Assembly (NCBI GenBank): GCA_025463515.1 | Contig: JAODAQ010000029.1 | Coordinates: forward strand, 20,977-84,976 | Direction: 5' to 3' | Source of the DNA: Rhodoglobus sp. | GTDB taxonomy: Bacteria; Actinomycetota; Actinomycetes; Actinomycetales; Microbacteriaceae | DNA length: 64,000 nucleotides | Shown: positions 17,964 through 31,419 of the stretch, piece by piece | Numbering within the stretch: the first letter of the stretch is position 1 | Layout of the letters: each line of letters begins with the position of its first letter | Made by a program: the position numbers and the translations under genes | The notes under the pieces: model-generated | What the model was told of the DNA's origin: nothing | Seen by the model: the letters and a program-made list of their open reading frames with translations, nothing else | Databases searched by the model: none

Positions 17964-18037
17964 GCCCCGGTGGCCCAATTGGCAGAGGCAGACGACTTAA
18001 AATCGTTTCAGTCAGGGTTCGAGTCCCTGCCGGGGCA
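17964..18037 (+). tRNA. tRNA-Leu (TAA anticodon)
   Basis: A 74-base cloverleaf is visible. The acceptor stem GCCCCGG pairs with CCGGGGC before discriminator A. The anticodon stem GACGA/TCGTT holds the loop CTTAAAA, giving anticodon TAA. The T arm is CAGGG-TTCGAGT-CCCTG. CCA is not encoded. The variable region is only about five bases, short for a leucine tRNA, although I recall similar short Leu(TAA) genes annotated in actinobacteria. The 3' end is the integration site of the element that follows. Confidence 0.9.
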
Positions 18038-18038
18038 C
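18017..18038 (+). other. attL core (3' end of tRNA-Leu)
   Basis: This is the left copy of the 22-bp direct repeat. It covers the T-loop, the 3' side of the T stem and acceptor stem, and one base beyond, so insertion regenerates an intact tRNA. Confidence 0.85.
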
Positions 18039-18107
18039 CCTCTCGGAGGGCTCAACTTCTCTTTGTTTAGGCGGAAGTTGGGTCAATCCGACGGCCTAAA
18101 AACGGCT

Positions 18108-18128
18108 CGTGCCCACATTTTGCCCACA
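18108..18128 (+). repeat. Left arm-type repeat (21 bp)
   Basis: This 21-bp sequence, built from two TGCCCACA units eleven bases apart, is identical to 31272-31292. Each copy lies 70-105 bp inside an att core, which fits arm-binding sites of the tyrosine integrase. Confidence 0.75.
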
Positions 18129-18196
18129 CTTTTTTCAAAGTCAGGGTGATTGAAGGTGCCACTCAGGGCTTCTGTGAGACCTCGATGGACGCACGA

Positions 18197-18227
18197 GACC
18201 CCTGCCTGAACTAGTCAGGCAGGGGTC
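18197..18227 (-). terminator. Strong hairpin terminator for the cmtR operon
   Basis: A perfect 13-bp stem (18197-18209 with 18215-18227) with a five-base loop lies just downstream of the Cys-rich peptide gene on the minus strand. It marks the end of the cmtR-peptide transcript. Confidence 0.8.
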
Positions 18228-18242
18228 CGAGTGCGAGATCGG

Positions 18243-18308
18243 CTAGCAGCAGGTGCAGCCGTCCACGCAATCTGCGGTGCAGCAACTTGCGTTGCAACAT
18301 TCGGCCAT
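18243..18308 (-). CDS. Cys-rich 21-residue metallothionein-like peptide
   Basis: A very short frame encodes a peptide with cysteines at positions 4, 5, 9, 10, 14, 18, 20 and 21, i.e. eight of 21 residues (start MAECCNASCC, end GCTCC). A near-perfect AAGGAGG site ends five bases before the second of two adjacent ATG codons, so that ATG is chosen; the first would add one Met. It lies about 45 bp downstream of a CmtR-type Cd/Pb sensor gene and is followed by a strong terminator, so it is the last gene of that operon. A metal-sequestering role is inferred from composition and context; I know no named family. Confidence 0.7.
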   Translation of the reverse strand: MAECCNASCCTADCVDGCTCC

Positions 18309-18354
18309 CATGGCCTCCTTCCCCGTCCGTTGTTCTCGGGCGGTCTTGGGCTGC

Positions 18355-18699
18355 TCAGTCGCAGCATCCGGGTACGTCACACGAGTCGTTTAGGCAGGGC
18401 GCACCTTCGTCGACGGCGAGCACCACGTTCATCAAGGATGAGAGCGCTGTGGCCAGGTGAGCGTCCGCGATTTCATAGCGGGTCTGGCGCCCTTCGGGGA
18501 CAGCGACGACGAGGCCGCATCCGCGCAGGCAGGTCAGGTGATTGGACACGTTCGGCCGCGTGAGCTCAAGCTCTCTGGCCAGCTCGCCCGGATAGCCCGG
18601 GCGGTCGAGCAGGCTCATCAAGATGCGGGAGCGATTCGGGTCGGCCATGGCTCGGCCGAGCCGGTTCATCACATCGAGGCGGGAGGCAATGGTCAGCAT
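18355..18699 (-). CDS. cmtR: CmtR-type ArsR/SmtB metal sensor (Cd/Pb)
   Basis: The 114-residue winged-helix repressor closely follows mycobacterial CmtR. The recognition helix is TRPNVSNHL, and cysteines 57, 61 and 102 fall at exactly the positions used by Mycobacterium tuberculosis CmtR to bind Cd(II)/Pb(II). The C-terminal tail adds three further cysteines (107, 112, 113). It should repress its own operon until metal binds. The start is leaderless: TATAGT at 18706-18711 is six bases from the ATG and overlaps an inverted repeat that is likely the operator. The gene downstream encodes the Cys-rich peptide. Confidence 0.9.
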   Translation of the reverse strand: MLTIASRLDVMNRLGRAMADPNRSRILMSLLDRPGYPGELARELELTRPNVSNHLTCLRGCGLVVAVPEGRQTRYEIADAHLATALSSLMNVVLAVDEGAPCLNDSCDVPGCCD

Positions 18700-18703
18700 G
18701 CAC

Positions 18704-18717
18704 TGACTATACAGTCA
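18704..18717 (-). promoter_or_regulatory. cmtR operator/promoter
   Basis: The inverted repeat TGACT-ATAC-AGTCA overlaps the minus-strand -10 hexamer TATAGT, which is six bases before the cmtR start codon. The arrangement suits autorepression of a leaderless transcript. Confidence 0.6.
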
Positions 18718-18725
18718 CGACTGAC

Positions 18726-19388
18726 CTAATGGGAGGGCTCAGCAGGGAGCAGGTCGGCCAGAAGGGACTCGACTCGGAGTTTGATCTCGTCGCGGACCAG
18801 ACGAACCTCGTCGATGGGTAGTCCGGCAGGGTCGGTGAGGTCCCAGTCGAGGTAGCGTTTGCCGGGATAGATGGCGCAGGCGTCGCCGCAGCCCATGGTG
18901 ACGACCATATCGGCTGCCTGAACGACGTCGTCGGTCAGTGGCTTCGGGAACTCTTCGTTGAGGTCGAGGCCGAGTTCGGCCATGACCTCGATCACGGCGG
19001 GGTTGATGACGTTCGTGGGCGATGAGCCTGCGGAGCGGACGTGGACGCGTCCGTTGCCGAGATGGTGCGTGAGAACGGCGGCCATCTGCGAGCGGCCCGC
19101 GTTCTGCTCGCAGACGAACAGGATCTCGGGCACCGGGGACTCGATCGCACCCTTTGCCTGCGCGAGCGCGGTCAGCCGGTCGGTGGCGAAGCGTGTGGTC
19201 TGTGAGGCGAGGTGGGCTTTGACTTTCGAGGTGCGGAGCAAGCCCGTGTAGGACTCGAGGACGTAGCGCTCGACAGTCTCGGCTCCGAAGATCCCGGCGA
19301 ACTTGTCGGTCAGATCAGACGCAAGGCGCTTGAGGTAATCCTCGGGGTAGGCGAGGCCAGGCATCCCGCGGCGGGCGGTGAGGTCCAT
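18726..19388 (-). CDS. arsC: Arsenate reductase with N-terminal three-helix-bundle domain
   Basis: This 220-residue protein joins an N-terminal helical domain of about 85 residues (LASDLTDKFAGIFGAETVERYVLESY...) to a low-molecular-weight phosphatase-type arsenate reductase. The active-site loop reads CEQNAGRSQ, and the second cysteines lie in MGCGDACAIYPGKRYLDWDL. The enzyme should reduce As(V) to As(III), probably with mycothiol/mycoredoxin as in Corynebacterium ArsC. It starts two bases after the stop of the preceding arsC, so the two are coupled, and it ends 26 bp before cmtR begins. A glutamate replaces the usual residue after the catalytic Cys. Confidence 0.85.
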   Translation of the reverse strand: MDLTARRGMPGLAYPEDYLKRLASDLTDKFAGIFGAETVERYVLESYTGLLRTSKVKAHLASQTTRFATDRLTALAQAKGAIESPVPEILFVCEQNAGRSQMAAVLTHHLGNGRVHVRSAGSSPTNVINPAVIEVMAELGLDLNEEFPKPLTDDVVQAADMVVTMGCGDACAIYPGKRYLDWDLTDPAGLPIDEVRLVRDEIKLRVESLLADLLPAEPSH

Positions 19389-19390
19389 GG

Positions 19391-19795
19391 TCAGGCGGGC
19401 AGCAGTTCGGCGAGCAGGGTTTGGATGCGCTGCTTGATGTCGTCGCGAATGGGGCGGACCTCGTCGATGCTCTTGCCCTTGGGGTCGACCAGTTCCCAGT
19501 CCTCATAGCGCTTGCCGGGGAAGATCGGGCAGACGTCGCCGCAGCCCATGGTGATGACGACGTCGGAGTCACGGACCTGCTCGGTGGTCATGAGCTGCGG
19601 TACGCCTTGGCTGATGTCGATGCCCTCTTCGGCCATGGCCTGGATGGCAATCGGGTTGATCTCGTTGCCCGGCTCGGAGCCGCCGGAGCGCACTTCGACG
19701 GCGCCACCGGACAGCGCCTTCATGTACCCGGCGGCCATCTGCGAGCGGCCGGCGTTGTGAATGCAGACGAACAGAACTACGGGCTTCTCGGTCAT
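19391..19795 (-). CDS. arsC: Arsenate reductase, stand-alone LMW phosphatase type
   Basis: The 134-residue protein has the canonical CIHNAGRSQ loop with the nucleophilic cysteine at residue 11 and the second cysteine pair in MGCGDVCPIFPGKRYEDWEL. It reduces arsenate to arsenite. The start at 19795 is preferred over ATG 19816 because TATGCT (19802-19807) lies exactly six bases upstream, giving a leaderless mRNA, and because homology begins at MTEKPVVLFVC. The operator-like inverted repeat CATAGA-N6-TCTATG overlaps that hexamer and is shared with the next gene upstream. Confidence 0.88.
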   Translation of the reverse strand: MTEKPVVLFVCIHNAGRSQMAAGYMKALSGGAVEVRSGGSEPGNEINPIAIQAMAEEGIDISQGVPQLMTTEQVRDSDVVITMGCGDVCPIFPGKRYEDWELVDPKGKSIDEVRPIRDDIKQRIQTLLAELLPA

Positions 19796-19803
19796 ATCGA
19801 AAG

Positions 19804-19821
19804 CATAGACCATCATCTATG
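19804..19821 (-). promoter_or_regulatory. Operator upstream of arsC (CATAGA-N6-TCTATG)
   Basis: A perfect 6-bp inverted repeat with a six-base centre overlaps the -10 of arsC. The same 18-bp pattern with the same spacing occurs at 20796-20813 in front of the ArsR-ArsC fusion, so one regulator probably controls both. Confidence 0.65.
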
Positions 19822-19847
19822 GATTAAGTTGGGGAGCCGGACCGAGT

Positions 19848-20798
19848 TCACGCAGCGTTCATGACCGCCATGTCGGCGAGCAGTGCGCGGACGCGGGTGT
19901 TGATGTCGTCGCGGACGGCGCGGACGCCGTCCATGGAGAGGTCTGCGGGATCTGGCAGATCCCAGTCGAGGTAGCGGCGGCCGGGGTAGATCGGGCAGGC
20001 GTCGCCGCAGCCCATGGTGATGACGTAGTCGGCGGCGCGCACGACCTCGTCGGTGAGCGGCTTGGGGTACTCGCCGCCGATCGGGATGCCGATCTCGTCC
20101 AGCGCGGCGATGATCTTCGGATTGATCGAGCCTGCGGGCTCAGAGCCGGCGGTCAGCACTCGCACGCGGTCGCCGGCCAAGGAACGAAGGATCGCGGAAG
20201 CGAGTTGAGAGCGACCGGCGTTCTGCACGCACACGAAGAGCACGTCGGGCACGTCGTCGGTGATGAGGCCGTCGGCGGCGGCAAGGGCGCGCAGACGGTC
20301 GGCGGCGAAGCGGGCGGTCAGCGAAGGCAGGTAGCGAGTGATGCGGGCGCGGTCGGCGAGCAGTGTGTAGCTGCCGTGCACATACTCAGCCACGGTCTCG
20401 AGGGAGAACACCCCGGCGAACCTGGTGGCCAGATCGACGGCGATCCGGTCCAGCACTGGGGGAGCGACGACCGCGGCGACCGGGTCGGCGTGCACGGAGT
20501 CGAAGACTTCGTTCACGCGTGAGGGCACGACTGAGTACCAGACGGTGCGGCCCTCCTGTGCCCGCTCGAGCAGGCCCTCGTCGGTCATGATCCGCAGGTG
20601 GTGGCTCACCGTCGGCTGGGTGAGCCCGAGTTCGTCGGCGAGTTCGGTGACGGGTCGGCGGCCGCCGTCGGCCTCGACGATGAGGCTGAGGATCTGGATG
20701 CGAGTGGGGTCGGCCATCGCCCGGAGGTTGCGGGCGATCTGCTCGGCCTCGGCCCGGCCGAGCAGCCCGGGGCGCGATTCAGGGTCGGCGGGAAGCAT
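19848..20798 (-). CDS. ArsR regulator fused to arsenate reductase
   Basis: The 316-residue protein has three parts. Residues 15-105 form an ArsR/SmtB winged helix (recognition segment LTQPTVSHHLRIM). Residues 110-180 form a three-helix bundle like that of the neighbouring arsC. Residues 185-310 form a reductase with CVQNAGRSQ (nucleophile C190) and MGCGDACPIYPGRRYLDWDL. The regulator half has no cysteine at all, so it cannot sense arsenite by the usual thiol site unless the reductase half provides one. Its start codon lies inside a perfect inverted repeat, implying autoregulation. Confidence 0.88.
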   Translation of the reverse strand: MLPADPESRPGLLGRAEAEQIARNLRAMADPTRIQILSLIVEADGGRRPVTELADELGLTQPTVSHHLRIMTDEGLLERAQEGRTVWYSVVPSRVNEVFDSVHADPVAAVVAPPVLDRIAVDLATRFAGVFSLETVAEYVHGSYTLLADRARITRYLPSLTARFAADRLRALAAADGLITDDVPDVLFVCVQNAGRSQLASAILRSLAGDRVRVLTAGSEPAGSINPKIIAALDEIGIPIGGEYPKPLTDEVVRAADYVITMGCGDACPIYPGRRYLDWDLPDPADLSMDGVRAVRDDINTRVRALLADMAVMNAA

Positions 20799-20814
20799 AG
20801 ACGTGAGTCTATGC
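20795..20814 (-). promoter_or_regulatory. Operator of the ArsR-ArsC fusion gene
   Basis: Perfect 8-bp arms GCATAGAC/GTCTATGC are separated by four bases. The start codon of the fusion gene and the candidate -10 (TAGACT, seven bases before the ATG) both lie in it. It shares the CATAGA-N6-TCTATG core with the arsC promoter. Confidence 0.7.
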
Positions 20815-20831
20815 GAACCCTCCGATCTGGG

Positions 20832-22148
20832 TCAGGAGCAGCAGGATGACGACGACGAATCCGTCGAGCACACACCGGTCGCGGGCAGGACTAGCTTGAC
20901 GTTGCGGGCTGCGGTGAGGTCGCCCGCCAAGTAGGCGGTGATCGAGCGGACCTGCTCGTAGCCGGTGGCGAGCAGGAAGGTGGGGGCGCGTCCGTAGCTC
21001 TTCATCCCGGCGATGAAGAAGTTTGGCTCGGGCTGTTCCAGCTCGGTGAACCCGTGGGGCTCGACGGTGCCGCAGCTGTGCAGGTTCGGGTCGATGAGCG
21101 GGGCGAGCCTGACGGGCGCTTCGACGATGTCATCGAGGGACAGGCGGATCTCTCGCAGTATGCCGAGGTCGGGCCGGAAGCCGGTGGCGTTCACGATCAG
21201 GTCCGTGGTGAGGTGCTCGATGCTGCCGTTGCGAAGACCGGCGATGTCGACCTGTTCGCCGCTCCTGGATAGTTCGAGGATCTCGAATCCGTCGACGACA
21301 GTGATCACGCCGAAGTCGATGAGCTTCTGCACCTTCGACCCGAGCGAGGCGCGACCGGCCAGCTCGTCGTCATCGGAGGTAAAAACCCGCACGGCGGACT
21401 TGTTGCGGATTACCCATGTCACGGTCGTGTCGGGCGAGGTCTGGATGAGCGTCGACAGGTTGATGAGGGTGTTGGCAGCAGAGTGCCCGGCACCGACGAC
21501 GGTGATGTGTTTGCCGGCGAACCGGGCACGGTCGGCCCCGAGAACGTCAGGCAGCGCGTGTGTGACGTGGTGGGCGACTGCGTCGAGGCCCAGCGGGTCG
21601 AGTCCGTTCGAGCCGAGGCTGTTGGTGGTGCGGTAGGTGCCGGAGGCGTCGATGACGGCGCGGGCAGTGACCTCGGTCACCGTGCCGTTTGAGTCGGTGA
21701 TGCGCAGCGCGAACGGGGTGCTGGCGCGACCGGTCGAGCGGGTGCGGTCCATGCCTTGGCGGGTGACCGCGGCGACGGTGACGCCGGTATGGATACGGGA
21801 GGAGATCGAGTCGAGGCCGGCGAGCGGGTGAAGGTACTGCTCGACCAGCTCGGTTCCGCTGGGGGCCTTGTCCTGGTAACGGGGCTCGGTCCAGCCGTCC
21901 GCCTCGAGCAGGCGGTGGGCCGCCGGGTCGATGAGGTGCTTCCACGGCGAGAAGAGGCGGATATGGCCCCAGGAGCGCATGCTGCTGGCGATCGAATCGC
22001 CCGCCTCGTAGATGACGAAGTCGATCCCGCGTTCAACAAGGTTCGCGGCGGCGGCCAGGCCGATGGGCCCGGCGCCGATGATCGCGACGGGCAGGCCGTC
22101 AAGCCGTGAGTCGCGGACAATGGGCGAGGTTAGGTCGATGAGGGTCAT
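20832..22148 (-). CDS. ArsO-like flavin-dependent oxidoreductase
   Basis: The 438-residue protein is a two-Rossmann flavoprotein. An FAD-binding GAGPIGLAAAANL motif lies near residue 25, an NAD(P)H motif VVGAGHSAANTLINL near residue 215, and a flavin monooxygenase-like signature NATGFRPDLGIL near residue 320. Proteins of this type accompany arsR/arsC genes in many actinobacteria (often called ArsO), but the reaction is not firmly known. The extreme C-terminus is Ser-rich with three cysteines (CSTDSSSSSCCS), unlike typical monooxygenases. It begins ten bases after the 49-residue small ORF. Confidence 0.8.
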   Translation of the reverse strand: MTLIDLTSPIVRDSRLDGLPVAIIGAGPIGLAAAANLVERGIDFVIYEAGDSIASSMRSWGHIRLFSPWKHLIDPAAHRLLEADGWTEPRYQDKAPSGTELVEQYLHPLAGLDSISSRIHTGVTVAAVTRQGMDRTRSTGRASTPFALRITDSNGTVTEVTARAVIDASGTYRTTNSLGSNGLDPLGLDAVAHHVTHALPDVLGADRARFAGKHITVVGAGHSAANTLINLSTLIQTSPDTTVTWVIRNKSAVRVFTSDDDELAGRASLGSKVQKLIDFGVITVVDGFEILELSRSGEQVDIAGLRNGSIEHLTTDLIVNATGFRPDLGILREIRLSLDDIVEAPVRLAPLIDPNLHSCGTVEPHGFTELEQPEPNFFIAGMKSYGRAPTFLLATGYEQVRSITAYLAGDLTAARNVKLVLPATGVCSTDSSSSSCCS

Positions 22149-22158
22149 GGTGTCGTCC

Positions 22159-22308
22159 TTAGCAGCAGGCGAGTTCGCGGATGGGAGCGGCGGAGGGTTG
22201 CGGTCTTGGTGCCCGCTTGGGGGTTCTGGCCTGTCGGGCAGCGTCGATCAGTTCTTTGTGCTCTTGGTGGAAGAGCTTGAGCCAAGCCTCTGGGTTCGCG
22301 GCGAACAT
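22159..22308 (-). CDS. 49-residue small protein at the head of the arsO operon
   Basis: The frame begins MFAANPEAWLKLFHQEHKE and ends in IRELACC. The N-terminal half looks like an amphipathic helix; the second half is Pro/Arg-rich and closes with two adjacent cysteines. An AAGGAG site lies eight bases before the ATG, and the stop is ten bases before the ArsO-like gene, so it is the first gene of that transcript. The vicinal cysteines could bind As(III), which is inference. I do not recognise a family. Confidence 0.65.
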   Translation of the reverse strand: MFAANPEAWLKLFHQEHKELIDAARQARTPKRAPRPQPSAAPIRELACC

Positions 22309-22334
22309 CGGTAGTGCTCCTTCTGCCAATCATG

Positions 22335-22396
22335 CATCGATCTCTGTCGATGTTCGAGTATGAGCGCCTATATCGATGAATGTCAATGTTCGATAT
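22335..22396. promoter_or_regulatory. Divergent ars promoter region with two operator copies
   Basis: CATCGA-N6-TCGATG lies at 22335-22352, and a degenerate copy with the same spacing (TATCGA-N6-TCAATG) at 22371-22388. The second copy is also embedded in a longer repeat, ATATCGA/TCGATAT (22370-22376 and 22390-22396). It separates the 49-residue ORF (minus) from arsR (plus). TATGGT at 22394-22399 is six bases before the arsR ATG. Confidence 0.65.
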
Positions 22397-22405
22397 GGTT
22401 GAGCT

Positions 22406-22756
22406 ATGAGCACGATGACCTTGCTGCCCGTAATCCAAGCGGCCGCCTGCTGCGCACCGCTAACCCGTGACGCGATGACCCAGTCGCAAGCCGACGACCT
22501 TTCCAAGTCGTTGAAGGCAATCGCCGACCCGGCCAGGCTCCGGCTGATCTCGATCATCGCCGCGTCCGAGGGTCAGGAGGCGTGTGTCTGCGATCTGACT
22601 GAGCCGCTGAACATCGGCCAGCCCACCGTGTCGCACCACCTGAAGGTGCTCACCGAGGCCGGTTTCGTCACTCGTTCGAAGCGTGGAACGTGGGCGTACT
22701 ACAAGCTCGTCCCCGGGGCGCTGGACTCCCTCGCCCGACTGCTCGTCACCGCGTGA
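22406..22756 (+). CDS. arsR: ArsR arsenite-responsive repressor (Corynebacterium type)
   Basis: The 116-residue repressor has a winged helix with recognition segment IGQPTVSHHLKVL. Cysteines 15 and 16 lie in an N-terminal extension and cysteines 60 and 62 in EACVCDL. Corynebacterium glutamicum ArsR binds As(III) through Cys15, Cys16 and Cys55, so this appears to be the same site type. It should release its operator when arsenite enters the cell. The start is leaderless. Its stop overlaps the start of the aquaporin gene, so repressor and channel are co-translated. Confidence 0.9.
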   Translation: MSTMTLLPVIQAAACCAPLTRDAMTQSQADDLSKSLKAIADPARLRLISIIAASEGQEACVCDLTEPLNIGQPTVSHHLKVLTEAGFVTRSKRGTWAYYKLVPGALDSLARLLVTA

Positions 22757-23430
22757 ACATGGTCCGGCGCGTCAGCGCTGAACTGCTCGGAAGCGCCTTG
22801 CTTGCCGCCCTCGTCGTCGGCTCCGGAATCGCTGCCCAACGCCTCTCACCCTCCGACACCGGACTGCAGTTGCTCGAGAATGCGTTCGCGACAGCGCTCG
22901 GACTTCCCGTCCTCATCCTCATCTTCGGGCCGCTCAGCGGCGCACACTTCAACCCAGTCGTCTCCCTCGTCGACTCCGCCAGTGGGCTCCGGTCCTGGCG
23001 CGACACCGCCGCATACATCCCCGCCCAGATTGTCGGATGCATGCTCGGCGCGATGCTCGCCAACCTCATGTTCGGCGTCCCCGCCGTCAGCATCAGCACC
23101 ACCGACCGCGTCACCCCGGCGCACTTCCTCGCCGAGATCGTCGCCACCGCCGGTCTCATCCTTGTGATCTTCGTCCTCGCCCGAACGGGCCGGGCGAACC
23201 TCACCCCGGCCGCAGTCGGCGCATACATCGGCGCCGCCTACTTCTTCACCAGCTCCGCGAGCTTCGCCAATCCGGCCATCACCATCGGCCGGATGTTCAG
23301 CGACACCTTCGCCGGAATCGCACCTACCTCGGCACCCGGATTCATCGCAGCCCAACTCGTTGGCGGCGCAATCGGATTCATCCTCGTCGGCTGGCTGTAC
23401 CCGACCCGGCGAATTGCTCCCGCTAGTTGA
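22753..23430 (+). CDS. aqpS: AqpS-type aquaglyceroporin (arsenite channel)
   Basis: This 225-residue MIP-family channel has six hydrophobic helices and two half-helix signatures. The first is GAHFNPVVS (NPV box near residue 68) and the second SFANPAITIGR (NPA box near residue 175). In Sinorhizobium meliloti an ars-operon aquaglyceroporin lets As(III) produced by ArsC flow out down its gradient. Because no acr3 or arsB pump is present in this window, it may be the arsenite exit route. The GTG at 22753 overlaps the arsR stop; an ATG two codons later is an alternative. Confidence 0.88.
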   Translation: MNMVRRVSAELLGSALLAALVVGSGIAAQRLSPSDTGLQLLENAFATALGLPVLILIFGPLSGAHFNPVVSLVDSASGLRSWRDTAAYIPAQIVGCMLGAMLANLMFGVPAVSISTTDRVTPAHFLAEIVATAGLILVIFVLARTGRANLTPAAVGAYIGAAYFFTSSASFANPAITIGRMFSDTFAGIAPTSAPGFIAAQLVGGAIGFILVGWLYPTRRIAPAS

Positions 23431-23932
23431 CGTCGCTGCGGCGCTCCATGAGCACCGTGTCCCGCCACTGACCCGCCATCGGCCCATAGGTCATCAGCGC
23501 GATCCGCTCACGACGACCGATCGACCGGAAACCGAATTCGGCGTGCAGCCCGATGCTCGCAGCGTTCTCCGGGAAGATGCTCGACTGGATCGTCCACACT
23601 CCGTTGCGCTCGGCACTCTCGATGAACGTCTTGAGGAGCGCCCGGCCGATACCTTTGCCTCGAGCAGCATCAGCGACGTACACCGAGTGTTCGACGACAC
23701 CCGCATAGACAGAACGCGACGAGACCGGCGACGCGGCCACCCACCCGAGTACTACTCCTTCAGCGTCAGTCGCCACAAAACGGCTGTGTGTCACTTTGCC
23801 CGAATCGAAACCGTCCCAGCTCGGTGGCTCAGCTTCGAAGGTTGCGTGACCGGTTGCGATGCCCTCAGCGAAGATGACCTGTACCTCGGGCCAGTCGACT
23901 TCGGAGAGTGGGCGGATCGTCGCATCGCTCAT
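23423..23932 (-). CDS. arsN1: GNAT N-acetyltransferase, ArsN1/phosphinothricin acetyltransferase type
   Basis: The 169-residue protein is a GNAT-fold acetyltransferase with the acetyl-CoA loop ARGKGIGRALL and the family opening IRPLSEVDWPEVQVIFAEGIATGHATFE. In ars clusters this subgroup includes ArsN1, which acetylates the organoarsenical antibiotic arsinothricin; phosphinothricin acetyltransferases look very similar, so the substrate is inferred from context. It starts only eight bases after the integrase stop on the same strand and may share the repressor-integrase transcript. Its 3' end overlaps the aquaporin gene by eight bases. Confidence 0.8.
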   Translation of the reverse strand: MSDATIRPLSEVDWPEVQVIFAEGIATGHATFEAEPPSWDGFDSGKVTHSRFVATDAEGVVLGWVAASPVSSRSVYAGVVEHSVYVADAARGKGIGRALLKTFIESAERNGVWTIQSSIFPENAASIGLHAEFGFRSIGRRERIALMTYGPMAGQWRDTVLMERRSDVN

Positions 23933-23940
23933 GCCCACAT

Positions 23941-25143
23941 TCAAGCACCTGCCCCGCCCTGCGAGCGGTTCACGCTGGCGAGCGGAATAGCCGAGGCGTG
24001 CGTCGGTCGTGACCAGGACTTCCCCGCGTTCGATTCCGACCTGGCTCGGTCGAGCGCTCCAGCAAGAGTGTCCAGGTCGTCGTCGAACAGGTCGGCGTAG
24101 ACGTCGAGCGTCATCGCCGCTGACGAGTGCCCGAGCATCCGTTGGATCGCTTTGACATTGCCGCCGGCCGATACCGCGAGGCTCGCGGCCGTGTGGCGCA
24201 GGTCGTGCGGAGTCAGGCGGATGAAGGTCGGATCGAGTTCCTTCGCTCGAGCGATTGCGACCTCGAACCATCCATCAGCGTGCGCAGGCTGCTTGAGATG
24301 ATCGACTCCGTTTCCGAAGAGGAGGCCGCTCTGCCCTTTGCCCTCGCACGCGCGAGCCAGCTCGAGCGTGAGGAAGTCGGGGAAGGGCACGACGCGAGCG
24401 GAGTGGTTCTTCGGAGTGCCGACGATGATCTTGCCATTCACTCGCGTCGCGTTCTCCCGGACACCGAGTCGGCGGCGGAGGGTGTCGACATCGCGGACGC
24501 GCAGGGCGATCGCCTCGCCCCAGCGAAGGCCGGTGTAGGACAGGAGTCGGACGAGCGTCGCGTGCTGGCCGGATGACCTCGCGAGCAGCTCGACCTGCTC
24601 GTGGCTGAGGTAGGTGTGGGCCCGCTTCACCTTGCGGGGGAGCGACACACCGCGCGCGGGGTTGGCGAGGATGCGCCGGTCGCGCACTGCGGTGTCGAGG
24701 ATTGCCGCGAGCACCCCATAGCAGCGCAGGACGACCGTTGCGGATCGTGGGCCGCCAGTTGTGTGCTTGGTTACCGCCGTGCCCTGGGTCAGCTGCGATA
24801 CCCACGTCTGCACGTCTGAGTAGCGGATGTCCGAGATCGGCGTTGATCCCCACCGAGGCTCGACGTAGAGACGCCAGGCGATTTCGAGTGGCTCGAACGA
24901 GGAAGGCTTCAGGTGCGTCTGGGACGGAAGCCACGTAGCCCCGAGCTCTCTGACGAGCACCTTCGAAGAAGAGCTGTCGATGAACTCGCCACGAGCCTTC
25001 GACACTTCGGTCGCTGCCAGGAACAGCTCTGCCTCGCGCTTGGTCTTGAACCCGCGCTTGTCGGTCTGGCTGTGATCGGGCTTGCGATACCTGACGCGGT
25101 AACGCTTCCCGTCGGTCGTTGCGTATGAGGTGATTGATCCCAC
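23941..25143 (-). CDS. int: Tyrosine recombinase (integrase) of the element
   Basis: The 400-residue enzyme has an N-terminal arm-binding region (YRVRYRKPDHSQTDKRGFKTKREAE...), a SAM-like core-binding domain and a catalytic domain. The catalytic set is visible: Arg in YTGLRWGEA, H-x-x-R in TPHDLRHT, His in MLGHSS and the nucleophile Tyr in TLDVYADLF. It should recombine attP with the tRNA-Leu attB. The GTG at 25143, preceded by GGGGAGG, is chosen; the longer frame runs back into the repressor gene and is not protein-like. The repressor gene lies 22 bp upstream. Confidence 0.92.
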   Translation of the reverse strand: MGSITSYATTDGKRYRVRYRKPDHSQTDKRGFKTKREAELFLAATEVSKARGEFIDSSSSKVLVRELGATWLPSQTHLKPSSFEPLEIAWRLYVEPRWGSTPISDIRYSDVQTWVSQLTQGTAVTKHTTGGPRSATVVLRCYGVLAAILDTAVRDRRILANPARGVSLPRKVKRAHTYLSHEQVELLARSSGQHATLVRLLSYTGLRWGEAIALRVRDVDTLRRRLGVRENATRVNGKIIVGTPKNHSARVVPFPDFLTLELARACEGKGQSGLLFGNGVDHLKQPAHADGWFEVAIARAKELDPTFIRLTPHDLRHTAASLAVSAGGNVKAIQRMLGHSSAAMTLDVYADLFDDDLDTLAGALDRARSESNAGKSWSRPTHASAIPLASVNRSQGGAGA

Positions 25144-25165
25144 TGTGCCTCCCCACAGATTGTGT

Positions 25166-25765
25166 CTACGAAGCGTTCGCTTCGAGTTCGTCTTCGTCGA
25201 GCGGGAGATTCCACCCACCGGCGTTGAGCAGGGGACCGAGCCGCCTGATTGAGCGTTGCGCGTCCCGAAGCCGTTCTTGAGTGCGTCCCGCGTACGGGCC
25301 TCCGTCCAGTAGGTTCTCCTCGACCTGGAGCATTGCTTGAAGCCGACGGATTTCAGCACTCAGTGCGTGCCACTCGCGAAGCGCATTGAGCTCGGTTGTC
25401 GAGTTGCGGCCTTCAAGTGTTCTGGACATGTAGGCACCAGCATCGAGGCTGGCGAGCCACGCATCGAACTCGATTGCCGACATCCCGTCGAACGCGCTAC
25501 TCAGGCCGGGAAGGTCCAACGGCGCGGACGGGTCGTTCATCGGCGCGAGGATGTAGCTCGGCGGCACCTGCAAAGCCATGGCGATGTTGAGCAGTTGGCT
25601 GACGTCGAGGTTGGCTTTCCGCCCTAGCTCGATGTTCTCGATGATCGAGACAGTCATGCTGCCGCCGATCGCGTCGGCCAGATCCTTCGAGGTGCGCATG
25701 CCGCGGGAGCGGCGCAGGGTTTGAATCCTCGCACCGATCGTCTTCGCCGATCCGAAATCCGTCAT
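25166..25765 (-). CDS. XRE-family repressor-like protein
   Basis: The 199-residue protein has a Cro/CI-type helix-turn-helix at residues 10-70 (IGARIQTLRRSRGMRTSKDLADAIGG...ENIELGRK...). A C-terminal helical region of unknown function follows. It is divergent from the AlpA/Xis-like gene and lies directly upstream of int on the same strand, the usual place for an element's maintenance repressor. TTGACA lies upstream on the minus strand near 25793-25798. Confidence 0.82.
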   Translation of the reverse strand: MTDFGSAKTIGARIQTLRRSRGMRTSKDLADAIGGSMTVSIIENIELGRKANLDVSQLLNIAMALQVPPSYILAPMNDPSAPLDLPGLSSAFDGMSAIEFDAWLASLDAGAYMSRTLEGRNSTTELNALREWHALSAEIRRLQAMLQVEENLLDGGPYAGRTQERLRDAQRSIRRLGPLLNAGGWNLPLDEDELEANAS

Positions 25766-25869
25766 TTTTGCACCTTATCGCGTTTCCTGTTGTCAAACCA
25801 GCGAGAAAGCTTTACCGTCATTCTAACAACTACGAGCGACAAATGGTCGCAATATCAACAGGAGGAGTC
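25766..25869. promoter_or_regulatory. Divergent control region between repressor and Xis-like gene
   Basis: This A/T-richer 104-bp region separates two divergent genes. It contains a minus-strand TTGACA and a small perfect inverted repeat GCGAC-aaatg-GTCGC at 25836-25850, a possible repressor site. An AGGAGGAG ribosome site serves the plus-strand gene. Confidence 0.5.
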
Positions 25870-26070
25870 ATGGAAGAGGATTTCATTCACGCAACCGCCG
25901 TCGGCGAGATCACCGGCCTGTCGGCCGGAGCTCTGGCACAGCTTCGCTACCGGGGCATCGGCCCCAAGTTTTACAAGCCGACACCGCGCAAGGTGCTCTA
26001 TAAGCGATCCGAAGTCATTGCTTGGATCGAGGCGAGCGCCAAGGAGCGTACCTCGCCGACATACGCCTGA
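25870..26070 (+). CDS. AlpA/Xis-like winged-helix protein
   Basis: The 66-residue protein has the MerR-like winged-helix pattern of excisionases and AlpA regulators: ATAVGEITGLSAGALAQLRYRGIGPKFYKPTPRKVLYKRSEVIAWIE. Such proteins bind att DNA and steer the integrase towards excision, or activate int. A strong AGGAGGAG site precedes the ATG. It is divergent from the repressor and followed by the nested inverted-repeat region. Confidence 0.85.
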   Translation: MEEDFIHATAVGEITGLSAGALAQLRYRGIGPKFYKPTPRKVLYKRSEVIAWIEASAKERTSPTYA

Positions 26071-26094
26071 CGGGGCAGGGGTATTCCTGAGCTA

Positions 26095-26250
26095 CTTCCC
26101 GCATCGGGAATGGGCACGGGAAGCAAAGCGGTCCGTTTTCCCCTGTCCCACCGCCACTTCCCGGCTGCGCCGGCTTCCCAACCTCCCACACTCCACAAGT
26201 TCCGCGGGGGAGGTTGGGAAGTAAAGAAGAGGCGGTGGGACAGGGGAAAA
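26095..26250. repeat. Nested inverted-repeat structure: candidate oriT or replication origin
   Basis: An outer perfect 20-bp inverted repeat (26136-26155 with 26231-26250) encloses a perfect 14-bp inverted repeat (26174-26187 with 26208-26221) and a small hairpin CCGGC-tgc-GCCGG (26161-26173). Just upstream, TTCCCG-cat-CGGGAA (26096-26110) forms another hairpin, and CTTCCC/GGGAAG motifs recur. The structure is noncoding and lies between the Xis-like gene and the replication-relaxation gene, a natural location for a nick site or origin. Confidence 0.7.
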
Positions 26251-26295
26251 CAAAAAGAAGAAGAAGACAAACAAAAGGCGAGGAAGGAGAACGAG

Positions 26296-26964
26296 ATGAT
26301 GCAGTTGACGAGGCGGGATGAGCAGATGATCGAGTGGCTGAGCGTGGTGCGTATGGCTGACATCGACGCGATCCGATGGGCGCTGTCCGGACTGAAGAAC
26401 GGTCACGCCGACGATCCGGTTACGGTTCGGCGCGCCAACCAATGGATCGCGCGCATGGCCGAGGTCGGGCTCGTAGACAGGGTCCGGCCGATGTACCGCG
26501 ACCGGCAGATCGTGTGGCCCACGCACCTTGCAACGGGGCGAGCAGCGCCTGCCCTCTTCCGACAGACGATGCGCCACGAGCTCGCTGTCGCGGCGGTGTC
26601 GGCCCGATATCTAGCGCGTGGATACCGATGGTCACGCGACCACATTCCGCAGACGGTACTCGATCACCAGGTCGACGGCGTAGCGACCAAAGGAGACCTG
26701 GTCGAACTTATCGAGGTCGAGCTGACCGCGAAGAAGATCGCGCGCTACAGGCTGATTCACCAGCACCACGGTCAACGGATAGCTGGGGGAGTGTCCCGCG
26801 TCGTGTACCTCTGCACCGCCGACGTCGCGCGCACAGTGTCGCGCGAGGCCGACAGGTTCATATTCCGGGACGACCGCAGCCGCCTAATCACTCTGACTGT
26901 GTTCGACCAGCAGGGGAAGTGGATAGGTGGCGACCACGATCTTTGGAGAACGGACCGGACCTGA
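26296..26964 (+). CDS. Replication-relaxation family protein
   Basis: The 222-residue protein begins with a winged-helix-like region (LTRRDEQMIEWLSVVRMADIDAIRWAL...) and continues with a nuclease-like block including HELAVAAVSARYL, DHQVDGVATKGDLVELIEVELTAKKIARYR and the C-terminal GKWIGGDHDLW. This matches the replication-relaxation (Rlx-associated) family found on actinobacterial plasmids and integrative elements. The E-x-E-x-x-x-K segment resembles a PD-(D/E)XK-type core. The start at 26296 has AAGGAGA upstream; the frame before it crosses the inverted repeats. It converges with the first KAP gene. Confidence 0.75.
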   Translation: MMQLTRRDEQMIEWLSVVRMADIDAIRWALSGLKNGHADDPVTVRRANQWIARMAEVGLVDRVRPMYRDRQIVWPTHLATGRAAPALFRQTMRHELAVAAVSARYLARGYRWSRDHIPQTVLDHQVDGVATKGDLVELIEVELTAKKIARYRLIHQHHGQRIAGGVSRVVYLCTADVARTVSREADRFIFRDDRSRLITLTVFDQQGKWIGGDHDLWRTDRT

Positions 26965-26988
26965 GAGCGCGCGTACCACCACCCGCCG

Positions 26989-29127
26989 CTAGTCAGCAGG
27001 CGTCTCCTCAGGGTTCACATCTTGAAACTCGGTGTGCAGCAAGCTGAGTGCAAAAGCTCGGCGCTCGTCAGGAGTATCAAGTCTCTCGTAGTAGTTCATC
27101 GTGACCACGGGGGCCGCTTCTATGGCAGTTTCGAGTTGCTGCCGAATCTCTTCCAAGTCGACTAGGCGCCGAACCAAATCAAAATCGATATCGCGAAGTC
27201 GGGGCTGTGCGCCCGGTACACCCATCACCGTCGCAGTGCCTATGAATCGCGAGATGGTGTCCAGCGGACCCCAGCTCGCTAGGGCGCGATTTGCGAAATC
27301 TCGCGCACTATTCTCGTCGAGAACTGACCATGGCCAGATGAGGGACCAAAGATCAGAGGGAAAGTCGAACGGTCCATTCTCGATGTGCGGCTCTAGTCGG
27401 TCGAGAAGAATAGAACCGATCTTTTCTCTCGCGCTGGGTTCCAACGGCTGCCAATCAACAGGGGGTTCATCCGCTCGATCGGATGATGCCCAATCGAGCG
27501 CTCGAATAGCAAGAACCAGACCCAGCTCGCTCATCTCCGACATCCCCCGAATGGCAGGCAGCAGGTCCGAACGGGGTAGACGCCGCAGCAGGCGCGTCGC
27601 CAGCGCAATGAATCGCTCTTGCGGGGTCAGGAGTCCACCGCCTGTCGGAACATGCTCGAAGCCGTCCGCAAGCCAAAGCAACAGCGGCACGGAAGCAAGC
27701 TTCGATGTCTCTACGGCGAGGGCAACTTTGCTCACTAGCAGGTCCGGAGATTCAATCAGTGCTAACGACATGTGAACTGTCGCAGAGGTCGCTCGTTCCT
27801 GGTGAATGTCGAGGATGCCCTGCTCAACGATGGCGTCCGCAATATCGCCGCTCGCAATGCCAAACGAGAAATAGCGATCAAAATAGTCCGAGTTCGCCAG
27901 ACGTCGCGACTTGGATTCTTGCGACATACGCGCGCGGCCCGACCACACCGCATGGAACGCTGGGAAAAGGTCGCTCAGCAAGCTAGCCACTTTTTCCAAA
28001 TGTTCTTCGTTTGTTCCAGTTGCCAGCAGATCGCGACGCCATTCGGATGCAAGGGCAGCGAGCTTCTCATCTTTGAAATTGCTCGTCGAATTTAGCAACT
28101 CATCTCGACGGCGTTGGATGAACGTGTAGACGGCCGGCTCGCTGGTGCGTAGCCAGGTCAAGATCAAGAAGTCGCTCATGTCGATCTCGGCTGACAAACT
28201 TCTAACGAAGAGTTTGACCTGTCCGAAGTACCTCTTAATAGCTCTCGGCGTCGAGAGTCGCGCCCCGATGTGATCGAAGTACGCCTTGGAAAAACGCGTG
28301 GTTTCCTCGGGAGACATCTCCGACCCTGCGGTCGCTTCGGCAATACCGACGTTGGTCAGCTGGAGCGTGTCCGACGGCCTGAGCCGCGGGAGATCCATCC
28401 GCACTTGAATGACCTTCTCAAGGTACTCACGAGCGCGCGATACGGACTTCTTGCCAACCAAGCCGGTGCGGCCAAGGACGTCCAGAAGAGTTGTTTCGTC
28501 GTAAGCCAGCAAATAGTGGACATACGGAAGTCTTCCGATCAGCCTCACGAGCTTTAACGTCAGAAGAAGTTCCTCAGGGGCCAGTCGATCCAAGTCGTCC
28601 ATGATGACAAGCACTGGGGTCTTTCGCTTTTCAAGCGCGTTCTCGACTTTCTGGCGTGCTGCAGAAACACTCTGATCTCCGCCGATAAGTCGTGAGATAC
28701 CGACCAGGGCGGCGGAAGGATCCACCCCCACAATTGCGCCCACGGAGGTGAGCGGTGCAACGGATTCGCCAAGGCTCGCGATCTTCTTCCGAAGCTTGTC
28801 GTTCTTGTTTTCGCCTTCGAAAGCTCCCAGTAGTTCTGTGAAGAATCCGTGCTGCAACGAGGTTTGATCTGAGTAATTCCAGGGATTGAAAGCGACTACA
28901 CGCCAGCCCGACTCACTCGCTATTACTTTCTCTCGAAGATATTCAAGAATGCTGGTCTTTCCAGAACCCCACGGGCCGATCAACCCAAATGCGGTGGAGC
29001 TTTTCTTCTTGCCCGCTACTTGCAGGGTGGCCAGCGCCTTTTCAAGGAACGGTGCGCGACCTAGCCCGGCTGCTTCTGCTGCGCTGGGGTCATCGCTGAA
29101 AAGCTCAGGTTGAGAATGCTCTGTCAT
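26989..29127 (-). CDS. KAP family P-loop NTPase A
   Basis: The 712-residue protein has a KAP ATPase domain over about residues 25-330. Walker A is GPWGSGKT (51-58), FNPWNYS follows, Walker B is VIMDDLDRL (aspartates 177 and 178), and the downstream sensor region is RLPYVHYLLAYDETTL. KAP proteins usually carry membrane helices between Walker A and B; here there is only a weakly hydrophobic stretch at 128-148. The C-terminal half is helical and unrecognised. KAP members include the F-plasmid phage-exclusion protein PifA. It is divergent from a paralogous KAP gene with a mirrored leaderless promoter. Base composition is lower in GC than neighbours. Confidence 0.85.
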   Translation of the reverse strand: MTEHSQPELFSDDPSAAEAAGLGRAPFLEKALATLQVAGKKKSSTAFGLIGPWGSGKTSILEYLREKVIASESGWRVVAFNPWNYSDQTSLQHGFFTELLGAFEGENKNDKLRKKIASLGESVAPLTSVGAIVGVDPSAALVGISRLIGGDQSVSAARQKVENALEKRKTPVLVIMDDLDRLAPEELLLTLKLVRLIGRLPYVHYLLAYDETTLLDVLGRTGLVGKKSVSRAREYLEKVIQVRMDLPRLRPSDTLQLTNVGIAEATAGSEMSPEETTRFSKAYFDHIGARLSTPRAIKRYFGQVKLFVRSLSAEIDMSDFLILTWLRTSEPAVYTFIQRRRDELLNSTSNFKDEKLAALASEWRRDLLATGTNEEHLEKVASLLSDLFPAFHAVWSGRARMSQESKSRRLANSDYFDRYFSFGIASGDIADAIVEQGILDIHQERATSATVHMSLALIESPDLLVSKVALAVETSKLASVPLLLWLADGFEHVPTGGGLLTPQERFIALATRLLRRLPRSDLLPAIRGMSEMSELGLVLAIRALDWASSDRADEPPVDWQPLEPSAREKIGSILLDRLEPHIENGPFDFPSDLWSLIWPWSVLDENSARDFANRALASWGPLDTISRFIGTATVMGVPGAQPRLRDIDFDLVRRLVDLEEIRQQLETAIEAAPVVTMNYYERLDTPDERRAFALSLLHTEFQDVNPEETPAD

Positions 29128-29182
29128 GAGCCAAACGTAGGGCAGGGCTGCGGTGGCTCGAGAGCTGCTGTACGTTGCTCGC
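29128..29182. promoter_or_regulatory. Mirror-image leaderless promoters of the two KAP genes
   Basis: TACGTT lies six bases before the ATG on both strands: at 29134-29139 for the minus gene and 29171-29176 for the plus gene. The 55-bp gap therefore carries two matching -10 elements facing outwards, so the genes are probably co-regulated. Confidence 0.65.
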
Positions 29183-31270: not shown

Positions 31271-31271
31271 C

Positions 31272-31292
31272 CGTGCCCACATTTTGCCCACA
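31272..31292 (+). repeat. Right arm-type repeat (21 bp)
   Basis: This copy is identical to 18108-18128, in the same orientation, and lies directly after the second KAP gene, about 105 bp inside attR. The rest of 31293-31397 is noncoding with small hairpins such as TGGGGTG/CACCCCA (31316-31322 with 31330-31336). Confidence 0.75.
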
Positions 31293-31397
31293 TCCGTACG
31301 AAAAACCATGTGATGTGGGGTGATCACGGCACCCCAAGATCGTTGATTTTCCGGGGTTTTTGTGACCCCACTGAGCCCTAATAATCCGTACATTCGA

Positions 31398-31419
31398 GTT
31401 CGAGTCCCTGCCGGGGCAC
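31398..31419 (+). other. attR core (duplicated tRNA-Leu 3' end)
   Basis: This is the right copy of the 22-bp direct repeat. Only the T-loop and acceptor 3' half of the tRNA are present, so it is not a second tRNA gene. Chromosomal sequence resumes at 31420, eight bases before the stop codon of the TfoX-like gene. Confidence 0.85.

What the first reader, a model, noticed from the sequence alone, without database searches (positions are those of the whole stretch)
18243..18699. CmtR-type sensor followed by a 21-residue peptide with eight cysteines
Seen: CmtR homologue with Cys57, Cys61 and Cys102 at the exact Cd/Pb-binding positions of the mycobacterial protein, then a micro-ORF with an AAGGAGG site and cysteines in CC, CC, C, C and CC arrangement, then a perfect 13-bp terminator. 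Known: CmtR releases DNA on Cd(II)/Pb(II). Inference: the peptide is an inducible mini-metallothionein or metal chaperone, far shorter than known bacterial metallothioneins, and would be missed by standard gene callers.
Basis: partly seen in the sequence, partly recalled or inferred. Interest (0 to 1): 0.82.

Follow-up and report, generated by a model that had tools for sequence, protein, structure and literature searches.

The report
Twenty-one-residue metal-binding peptide behind cmtR
Right behind a gene of the cadmium/lead-sensor family CmtR sits a reading frame for a 21-residue peptide with eight cysteines, whose relatives turn up, with their cysteines kept by selection, in nine genera of one bacterial family; it is predicted to be one of the smallest genetically encoded metal-binding proteins (metallothioneins), likely overlooked because such genes are too short for gene-finding software.

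Summary
A CmtR-family gene (18355-18699, minus) is followed after 46 nt by a 21-codon ORF, MAECCNASCCTADCVDGCTCC, with an AAGGAGG site before it and a 13-bp hairpin behind it. In 16 of 19 DNA-distinct loci the ORF lies 33-164 nt behind cmtR; the others are CDF-peptide, arsC-peptide and an orphan. Cys codons change almost only silently (1 of 302 letters at positions 1/2, 24 of 151 at position 3). The peptides are 37% Cys, with no K, R, H, L, Q or aromatic residue. A second type (7 Cys, 22 aa), in two genomes, also follows cmtR or cmtR-CDF. cmtR promoters share a palindromic -10 element abutting the start. In the window the pair ends an arsenic operon on a tRNA-Leu integrative island. Best reading: an inducible micro-metallothionein working like SmtB/SmtA, but unrelated in sequence and less than half the (recalled) size. 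Translation and metal binding are untested.

The parts
18243..18308 (-). micro-ORF, 21 aa with eight Cys: MAECCNASCCTADCVDGCTCC (alternative ATG at 18311)
   Evidence: conserved family; codon-level selection
18314..18320 (-). Shine-Dalgarno AAGGAGG, 5 nt before the inner ATG
   Evidence: an SD-like motif (4 letters or more) before 18 of 19 family members
18355..18699 (-). cmtR: CmtR-family ArsR/SmtB repressor, 114 aa, Cys57/61/102 and tail CDVPGCCD
18700..18725 (-). operator/promoter-like element ending CTGTATAGTCAGTGC directly before the cmtR ATG (leaderless -10 inside an inverted repeat; function inferred)
   Evidence: 78 of 94 cmtR upstream regions carry the element at -15/-16
18196..18228 (-). 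hairpin behind the micro-ORF (13 perfect pairs plus G-U), likely terminator without a U-tract
   Evidence: a hairpin of -18.5 kcal/mol or stronger behind 16 of 19 family members
18726..19388 (-). arsC-like arsenate reductase, 220 aa, ends 26 nt before cmtR, same strand
   Evidence: below the curated cut-offs of the three models
19391..19816 (-). arsC-like arsenate reductase, 141 aa
   Evidence: below the curated cut-offs of the three models
19848..20798 (-). ArsR-ArsC fusion, 316 aa
20832..22148 (-). FAD/NAD(P) oxidoreductase, weakly ArsO-like (51 bits, cut-off 425)
22406..22756 (+). ArsR-family repressor with a CVCDL motif, divergent from the ars operon
23941..25359 (-). integrase of the island
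18017..18038 (+). left end of the island: 22 bp of the tRNA-Leu 3' end, repeated exactly at 31398-31419
31398..31419 (+). right end of the island (22-bp direct repeat)

Best explanation
The micro-ORF belongs to a conserved family of 20-22-residue peptides with seven or eight cysteines and is predicted to be a ribosomally made micro-metallothionein: CmtR would release its own promoter when Cd(II) or Pb(II) binds, cmtR and the peptide would be transcribed together, and the peptide would wrap soft metal ions in a small thiolate cluster and so buffer them until efflux. Shown by sequence: the conservation, the cysteine-selective codon constraint, the linkage to cmtR or other metal genes, the conserved promoter-proximal palindrome and the hairpin behind the gene. 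Inferred: translation, metal binding (about two to three divalent ions or two As(III) per peptide, from eight thiols), induction, and the sink role. In the window the pair also lies 26 nt behind an arsenic operon that faces away from an ArsR gene, so induction by arsenite through read-through is likely as well.
For: Conservation: 16 places in 14 of 398 family genomes and 4 of 27 genus genomes. Cys codons: 1 of 302 letters deviates at positions 1/2 against 24 of 151 at position 3 (Fisher p 1.7e-11, not corrected for relatedness); pN/pS 0.28 over 19 distinct DNA sequences. SD-like motif before 18 of 19, hairpin behind 16 of 19. Linkage: 16 of 19 lie 33-164 nt behind cmtR; the others are ArsR-CDF-peptide (L256), arsC-like-peptide (L259) and an orphan (L267). 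L272 reads ArsR-CDF-cmtR-peptide. Composition: 164 Cys of 443 residues, no K, R, H, F, W, Y, L or Q. A second 7-Cys, 22-aa type lies behind cmtR (L276) or cmtR-CDF (L078). Operator-like element at -15/-16 in 78 of 94 cmtR genes. On the Cnuibacter physcomitrellae plasmid the cassette lies in a metal region (P-type ATPase, 'cadmium resistance transporter', signal peptidase II) and has no listed CDS.
Against: No expression or binding data. No Pfam, NCBIfam or PHROGs model matches (such short queries have little power), so nothing ties it by homology to a known metallothionein. Three of 19 loci have no adjacent cmtR, one of them (L267, the weakest profile match, E 0.008) no recognised metal gene nearby. 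Of 19 neighbour proteins that I picked from the loci and sent to Pfam, 7 have no evident tie to metals. Distribution is narrow and patchy: 14 of 398 family genomes, while 195 of 398 have a cmtR-like gene at the cut-off used; among the 80 closest cmtR loci of the named collection only 3 carry a peptide of either type. Two of 19 peptides have only seven Cys. One cmtR beside a peptide (L258) is broken by a frameshift or sequence error. The hairpin lacks a U-tract, and the operator element had no shuffle control.
Confidence: 0.76

Rival explanations
1. Metal chaperone: the peptide hands Cd/Zn/Pb to an efflux pump (CDF or P-type ATPase), or strips metal from CmtR, rather than acting as a sink.
For: In L256 and L078 it is encoded directly behind a CDF-type exporter, with overlapping frames; in L272 a CDF exporter lies directly before cmtR; in L258 a P-type ATPase is a neighbour. 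In Mycobacterium tuberculosis, cmtR is followed by pacL2-ctpG, a small metal-binding partner and its pump (PMC13043812, passages).
Against: In most loci the gene next to the peptide, other than cmtR, is not a recognised pump (home-made gene calls, not all neighbours searched). The peptide has no basic and hardly any hydrophobic residues for docking.
Confidence: 0.13
2. Cysteine-responsive attenuator: translation of a Cys-rich sORF controls the gene behind it, as the poly-Cys leaderless sORFs of mycobacteria do.
For: Cys-rich sORFs with this role exist in mycobacteria (Canestrari 2020, as cited in PMC9094748, passages). In L265 an oxidoreductase and ars genes follow on the same strand, and in L262 a gene starts 39 nt behind.
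Against: Here the ORF has an SD-like site (18 of 19) and is followed by a strong hairpin (16 of 19), and the genes behind it differ from locus to locus, often on the other strand. Asp, Ser, Gly and Thr between the cysteines are largely conserved too.
Confidence: 0.04
3. Redox or thiol buffer, or zinc store, not specific to toxic metals.
For: Any 8-thiol peptide can bind Zn or be oxidised; actinobacteria use small thiols (general knowledge).
Against: Linkage to Cd/Pb- and As-type regulators and enzymes.
Confidence: 0.05
4. Spurious ORF in the 3' end of the cmtR transcript.
For: Only 21 codons; found in one family only; not in the protein-family libraries searched.
Against: Codon-level selection, recurrence in cmtR-less contexts, conserved ribosome site.
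Confidence: 0.02

Closest known systems
SmtB/SmtA (and AzuR/NmtA) of cyanobacteria: ArsR/SmtB-family repressor controlling a metallothionein
   Same: A metal-released ArsR/SmtB-family repressor gene sits beside a Cys-rich metal-binder gene (PMC7387436, passages; AzuR/NmtA: PMC8790569, start of abstract in a search listing).
   Different: smtB is divergent from smtA, whereas here peptide and repressor share one strand. SmtA is about 56 aa with His ligands (recalled); this peptide has 21 aa, no His, and matches no Pfam or NCBIfam model.
Neurospora crassa copper metallothionein
   Different: Eukaryotic; a copper-thionein built on a 7-Cys segment (abstract); here CC pairs, eight Cys, Cd/Pb/As contexts, bacterial.
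MymT of Mycobacterium tuberculosis
   Same: Metallothionein of an actinobacterium (PMC7387436, passage).
   Different: Copper-linked and about 53 aa (recalled); the two were not aligned here.
cmtR-pacL2-ctpG operon of M. tuberculosis
   Same: A small metal-handling protein gene directly behind cmtR (PMC13043812, passages).
   [quoted passage not shown] the peptide has none of these.
Poly-cysteine attenuator sORFs of mycobacteria
   Same: Cys-rich short ORFs.
   Different: Leaderless and controlling genes behind them (title of Canestrari 2020 in the reference list of PMC9094748; the paper itself is not held).

Membership tests
CmtR (Cd/Pb-sensing ArsR/SmtB regulator) | matches the CmtR equivalog model above its cut-off | tested here: met
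   173.5 bits against cut-off 150, NF047906
CmtR (Cd/Pb-sensing ArsR/SmtB regulator) | Cys57, Cys61, Cys102 (positions recalled for the mycobacterial protein) | tested here: met
   all three are Cys in the window protein
CmtR (Cd/Pb-sensing ArsR/SmtB regulator) | releases DNA on Cd(II)/Pb(II) | not testable with these tools
   needs an in vitro or reporter assay
Metallothionein, functional definition | small, very Cys-rich, no aromatic residues (criterion recalled) | tested here: met
   37% Cys, no F/W/Y/H in 21 listed peptides, 443 residues
Metallothionein, functional definition | binds metal in thiolate clusters | not testable with these tools
   needs mass spectrometry or spectroscopy of the peptide
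Metallothionein, functional definition | metal-inducible expression | tested here: inconclusive
   conserved operator-like element before cmtR in 78 of 94; no expression data
Known bacterial metallothionein families (SmtA/BmtA, MymT) | sequence similarity to a family model | tested here: not met
   no Pfam or NCBIfam hit, with the low power of a 21-aa query; best solved chain E = 4.2, not a metallothionein
PacL metal-efflux partners | N-terminal transmembrane helix and Ala/Glu repeats | tested here: not met
   the 21-aa sequence shows neither
Poly-Cys attenuator sORF | leaderless and upstream of a regulated gene | tested here: not met
   SD-like site before 18 of 19, hairpin behind 16 of 19, no common gene behind

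The most novel reading that the evidence does not exclude
An unrecognised class of ribosomally made metallothioneins of about 21 residues, shorter than the 26-residue Neurospora protein, in two types, carried as cmtR-peptide, CDF-peptide or arsC-peptide cassettes on islands and plasmids of one actinobacterial family and invisible to gene callers.
Probability: 0.7. Interest if true: 0.8.

Novelty: new variant of a known kind. Interest (0 to 1): 0.7.

Why it matters
If true, bacteria make a chelator of nearly phytochelatin size directly on the ribosome, under a Cd/Pb sensor. It would lower the known size limit of metallothioneins, show that searching behind metal-sensor genes uncovers short genes that annotation skips, and give a compact, easily synthesised, sensor-linked chelator for the study of Cd, Pb and As binding.

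Tried and rejected
Frames of up to 110 residues that held it in those loci were read by eye: they were mostly runs of Cys in low-complexity sequence, and none resembled the family. Plasmid tblastn with the 21-aa peptide found nothing, possibly because of BLAST's low-complexity filter; DNA queries then found one plasmid with E 8e-8 or better in two of the three searches and 2e-6 in the third, besides chance-level matches (E 0.1 to 0.9). Order and phylum samples (396 and 296 genomes) gave only the window's own genome. The second CmtR-like gene of the window's genome (L002, contig C53) lacks Cys102, and the locus scan showed no such peptide there. Solved structures: no relative. Attenuator, spurious ORF and PacL readings were set aside as argued above. 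A 49-aa ORF ending in CC (22159-22308) has no Pfam family and no convincing relative in the 150 loci searched. Literature: nine searches; in the listings seen (titles and abstract starts of part of the matches) no paper describes such a peptide; subscription papers are mostly not held.

Rows dropped or missed: one search missed L254 (pattern too strict); one search uses all 19 distinct DNA sequences, and the last Cys that L254 lacks is not counted there as a deviation. L013 is identical in DNA to L272 and is not among the 19; L007 is the contig of L254, and L275 is the same place as L078 (same coordinates). The cmtR set keeps 94 genes from the 126 loci given (duplicates, genes with under 60 bases upstream and matches not starting at residue 1-3 were dropped); these are close relatives, some nearly identical. 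The tree leaves out L256, L257 and L258, among others; its PEP group has 14 rows, and it has few columns.

Mended on re-check: the second type occurs in two genomes, not three; family members have seven or eight Cys, not always eight; counts of neighbours without a metal link and of the 80 named loci were added.

Full report
What is there. On the minus strand, cmtR (18355-18699) is followed after 46 nt by a 21-codon ORF (18243-18308) with AAGGAGG 5 nt before its ATG, and then by a hairpin of 13 perfect pairs. The regulator passes the NCBIfam CmtR equivalog cut-off and has Cys57, Cys61 and Cys102 (that these are the metal ligands of the mycobacterial protein is recalled). The eight-Cys codon pattern occurs once in the window with up to 2 mismatches and is not expected by chance.

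Conservation. Reading the DNA around related cmtR genes gave the same kind of peptide at once: MTDCCDGSCCTADCAEGCVC, MTESCDTSCCTTDCAEGCVCC, MTECCDASCCTTDCAEGCVCC and others; of the 80 closest cmtR loci of the named collection, 3 carry one (L007, L013 and, of another type, L078). A profile of six found 16 places in 14 of 398 genomes of the window's family, 9 of 85 genera. A profile of sixteen found 4 of 27 genomes of the genus. In an order sample (396 genomes, first profile) and a phylum sample (296, second profile) only the window's own genome matched. Named members place the family as Microbacteriaceae: L272, in the window's own genus, is identical to L013, a record titled Rhodoglobus sp. isolate RYN_77, and L262 (G026) is identical over 15.9 kb to a plasmid of Cnuibacter physcomitrellae, Microbacteriaceae. 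Invariant in the 16-row alignment: M1, C5, C9, C10, C14, C18, C20; C4, S8 and C21 in at least 90%. Two of the 19 DNA-distinct members have seven Cys, the others eight.

Selection on a protein. Over 19 distinct DNA sequences, Cys codons deviate from the consensus at positions 1/2 in 1 of 302 letters and at position 3 in 24 of 151 (Fisher p 1.7e-11; related sequences are not independent). Pooled pN/pS is 0.28, with mean nucleotide identity 76%. The 21 peptides listed (19 distinct; L013 beside its identical L272, and L078 of the second type) hold 164 Cys in 443 residues and no K, R, H, F, W, Y, L or Q.

Neighbourhood. In 16 of 19 loci the ORF starts 33-164 nt behind a cmtR on the same strand. The exceptions inform: in L256 it overlaps the end of a CDF-type cation exporter behind an ArsR-family gene; in L259 it lies behind an arsC-like gene in a cluster with an aquaporin and a cation exporter; in L267 it stands alone near tRNA-Pro. 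L272 reads ArsR-CDF-cmtR-peptide. In L265 the order is cmtR-peptide-oxidoreductase-ArsR/ArsC fusion-arsC. Of 19 neighbour proteins that I chose and sent to Pfam fit metal or metalloid handling (ArsR, arsC-like, CDF, P-type ATPase, VIT, MIP, the ArsO-like enzyme) and 7 do not (BacA, PAP2, RF-1, amine oxidase-like, melibiase, RibD_C, no hit); this is not a random sample. A hairpin of -18.5 kcal/mol or stronger follows 16 of 19; an SD-like motif of at least four letters precedes 18 of 19 (no shuffle control except for the window's own hairpin). On the Cnuibacter plasmid the surroundings include a P-type ATPase, a 'cadmium resistance transporter', a signal peptidase II and phosphatase- and thioredoxin-like genes, and no CDS is listed for the peptide (that gene table is incomplete by its own description).

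A second type. MPDCCDPTICADEACDASCACC closes a cmtR-CDF-peptide row in Mycetocola manganoxydans (L078, the same place as L275 of G086); MPECCDPAVCTPEACDPSCTCC lies behind cmtR in G236 (L276). It matched in 2 of 398 family genomes. It may be a relative or a convergent design; the sequences are too short to tell.

Regulation. Upstream of cmtR, 78 of 94 genes carry CTGTA-(T/C)-N-GT(T)-(C/A)A at -15/-16, that is a -10-like TATAGT inside an inverted repeat directly before the start codon, which suggests leaderless, autorepressed transcription (mechanism inferred). In the window cmtR starts 26 nt behind an arsC-like gene in a row of ars genes that faces away from an ArsR gene with a CVCDL motif, so two inducing routes are likely. 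On the cmtR tree the peptide's presence needs at least six changes, three of them forced by well-supported branches: the cassette was gained or lost repeatedly.

Mobility. A 22-bp stretch of the tRNA-Leu 3' end (18017-18038) recurs exactly at 31398-31419, a second 21-bp repeat lies just inside (18108-18128, 31272-31292), and an integrase gene lies between: the ars-cmtR-peptide block is on an integrative island of about 13.4 kb.

How it most likely works. Cd(II) or Pb(II) would bind CmtR, free the promoter, and lead to cmtR and peptide being made together; the peptide would chelate the metal by its thiolates. This is the logic of SmtB/SmtA (PMC7387436, passages), with a metal binder that matches no known family. 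The shortest metallothionein named in the papers seen is the 26-residue Neurospora protein, 'once considered' among the shortest (PMC4755600, abstract). A chaperone role beside CDF pumps is the main rival. In M. tuberculosis the gene behind cmtR is pacL2, a membrane protein of another build (PMC13043812, passages).

Why it was missed. The protein search over 5.77 billion sequences returned two proteins, of 45 and 34 aa, both ending in the peptide; the first reads as the open frame of L252. No Pfam, NCBIfam or PHROGs model matches the window peptide.

Limits. No wet data; one family; patchy (195 of 398 family genomes have a cmtR-like gene at the cut-off used); the profile may miss distant relatives; no metagenome scan was available. 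Nine literature searches listed no description.

Noticed in passing
window 18017-31419: Integrative island of about 13.4 kb at the tRNA-Leu 3' end, with a 22-bp direct repeat at both ends, a second inner 21-bp repeat and an integrase gene.
   Followed up: partly
window 26989-29184 (-) and 29153-31270 (+): Two oppositely oriented KAP-family P-loop NTPases of 731 and 705 aa inside the same island (Pfam KAP_NTPase 145 and 143.5 bits); both match the PADLOC model of the phage-exclusion protein PifA (193 and 176 bits): a possible paired defence module.
   Followed up: partly
window 22159-22308 (-): 49-aa ORF ending in LACC, between the divergent ars promoter region and the oxidoreductase gene; no Pfam family and no convincing relative in 150 loci.
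   Followed up: partly
window 20832-22148 (-): The FAD oxidoreductase of the ars operon ends in a Ser/Cys tail (SSSSSCCS) and is only weakly ArsO-like.
   Followed up: no
L273 4225-12215: A genome of the same genus has a similar oxidoreductase and GNAT gene (by eye), but its cmtR-peptide pair lies on the opposite strand from the oxidoreductase as a separate unit, and a second cmtR follows.
   Followed up: partly
L267 7811-7915 (-): 34-aa frame ending HDHDHDDESGRR directly before the orphan peptide, possibly the tail of a lost metal exporter or PacL-like protein.
   Followed up: no
L253-L273, about 20 nt before the peptide ATG: A stretch like ACAACGG-N-CGG precedes the ribosome site in many loci, also in the cmtR-less L256, as if ribosome site and ORF move as one cassette (by eye).
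   Followed up: no
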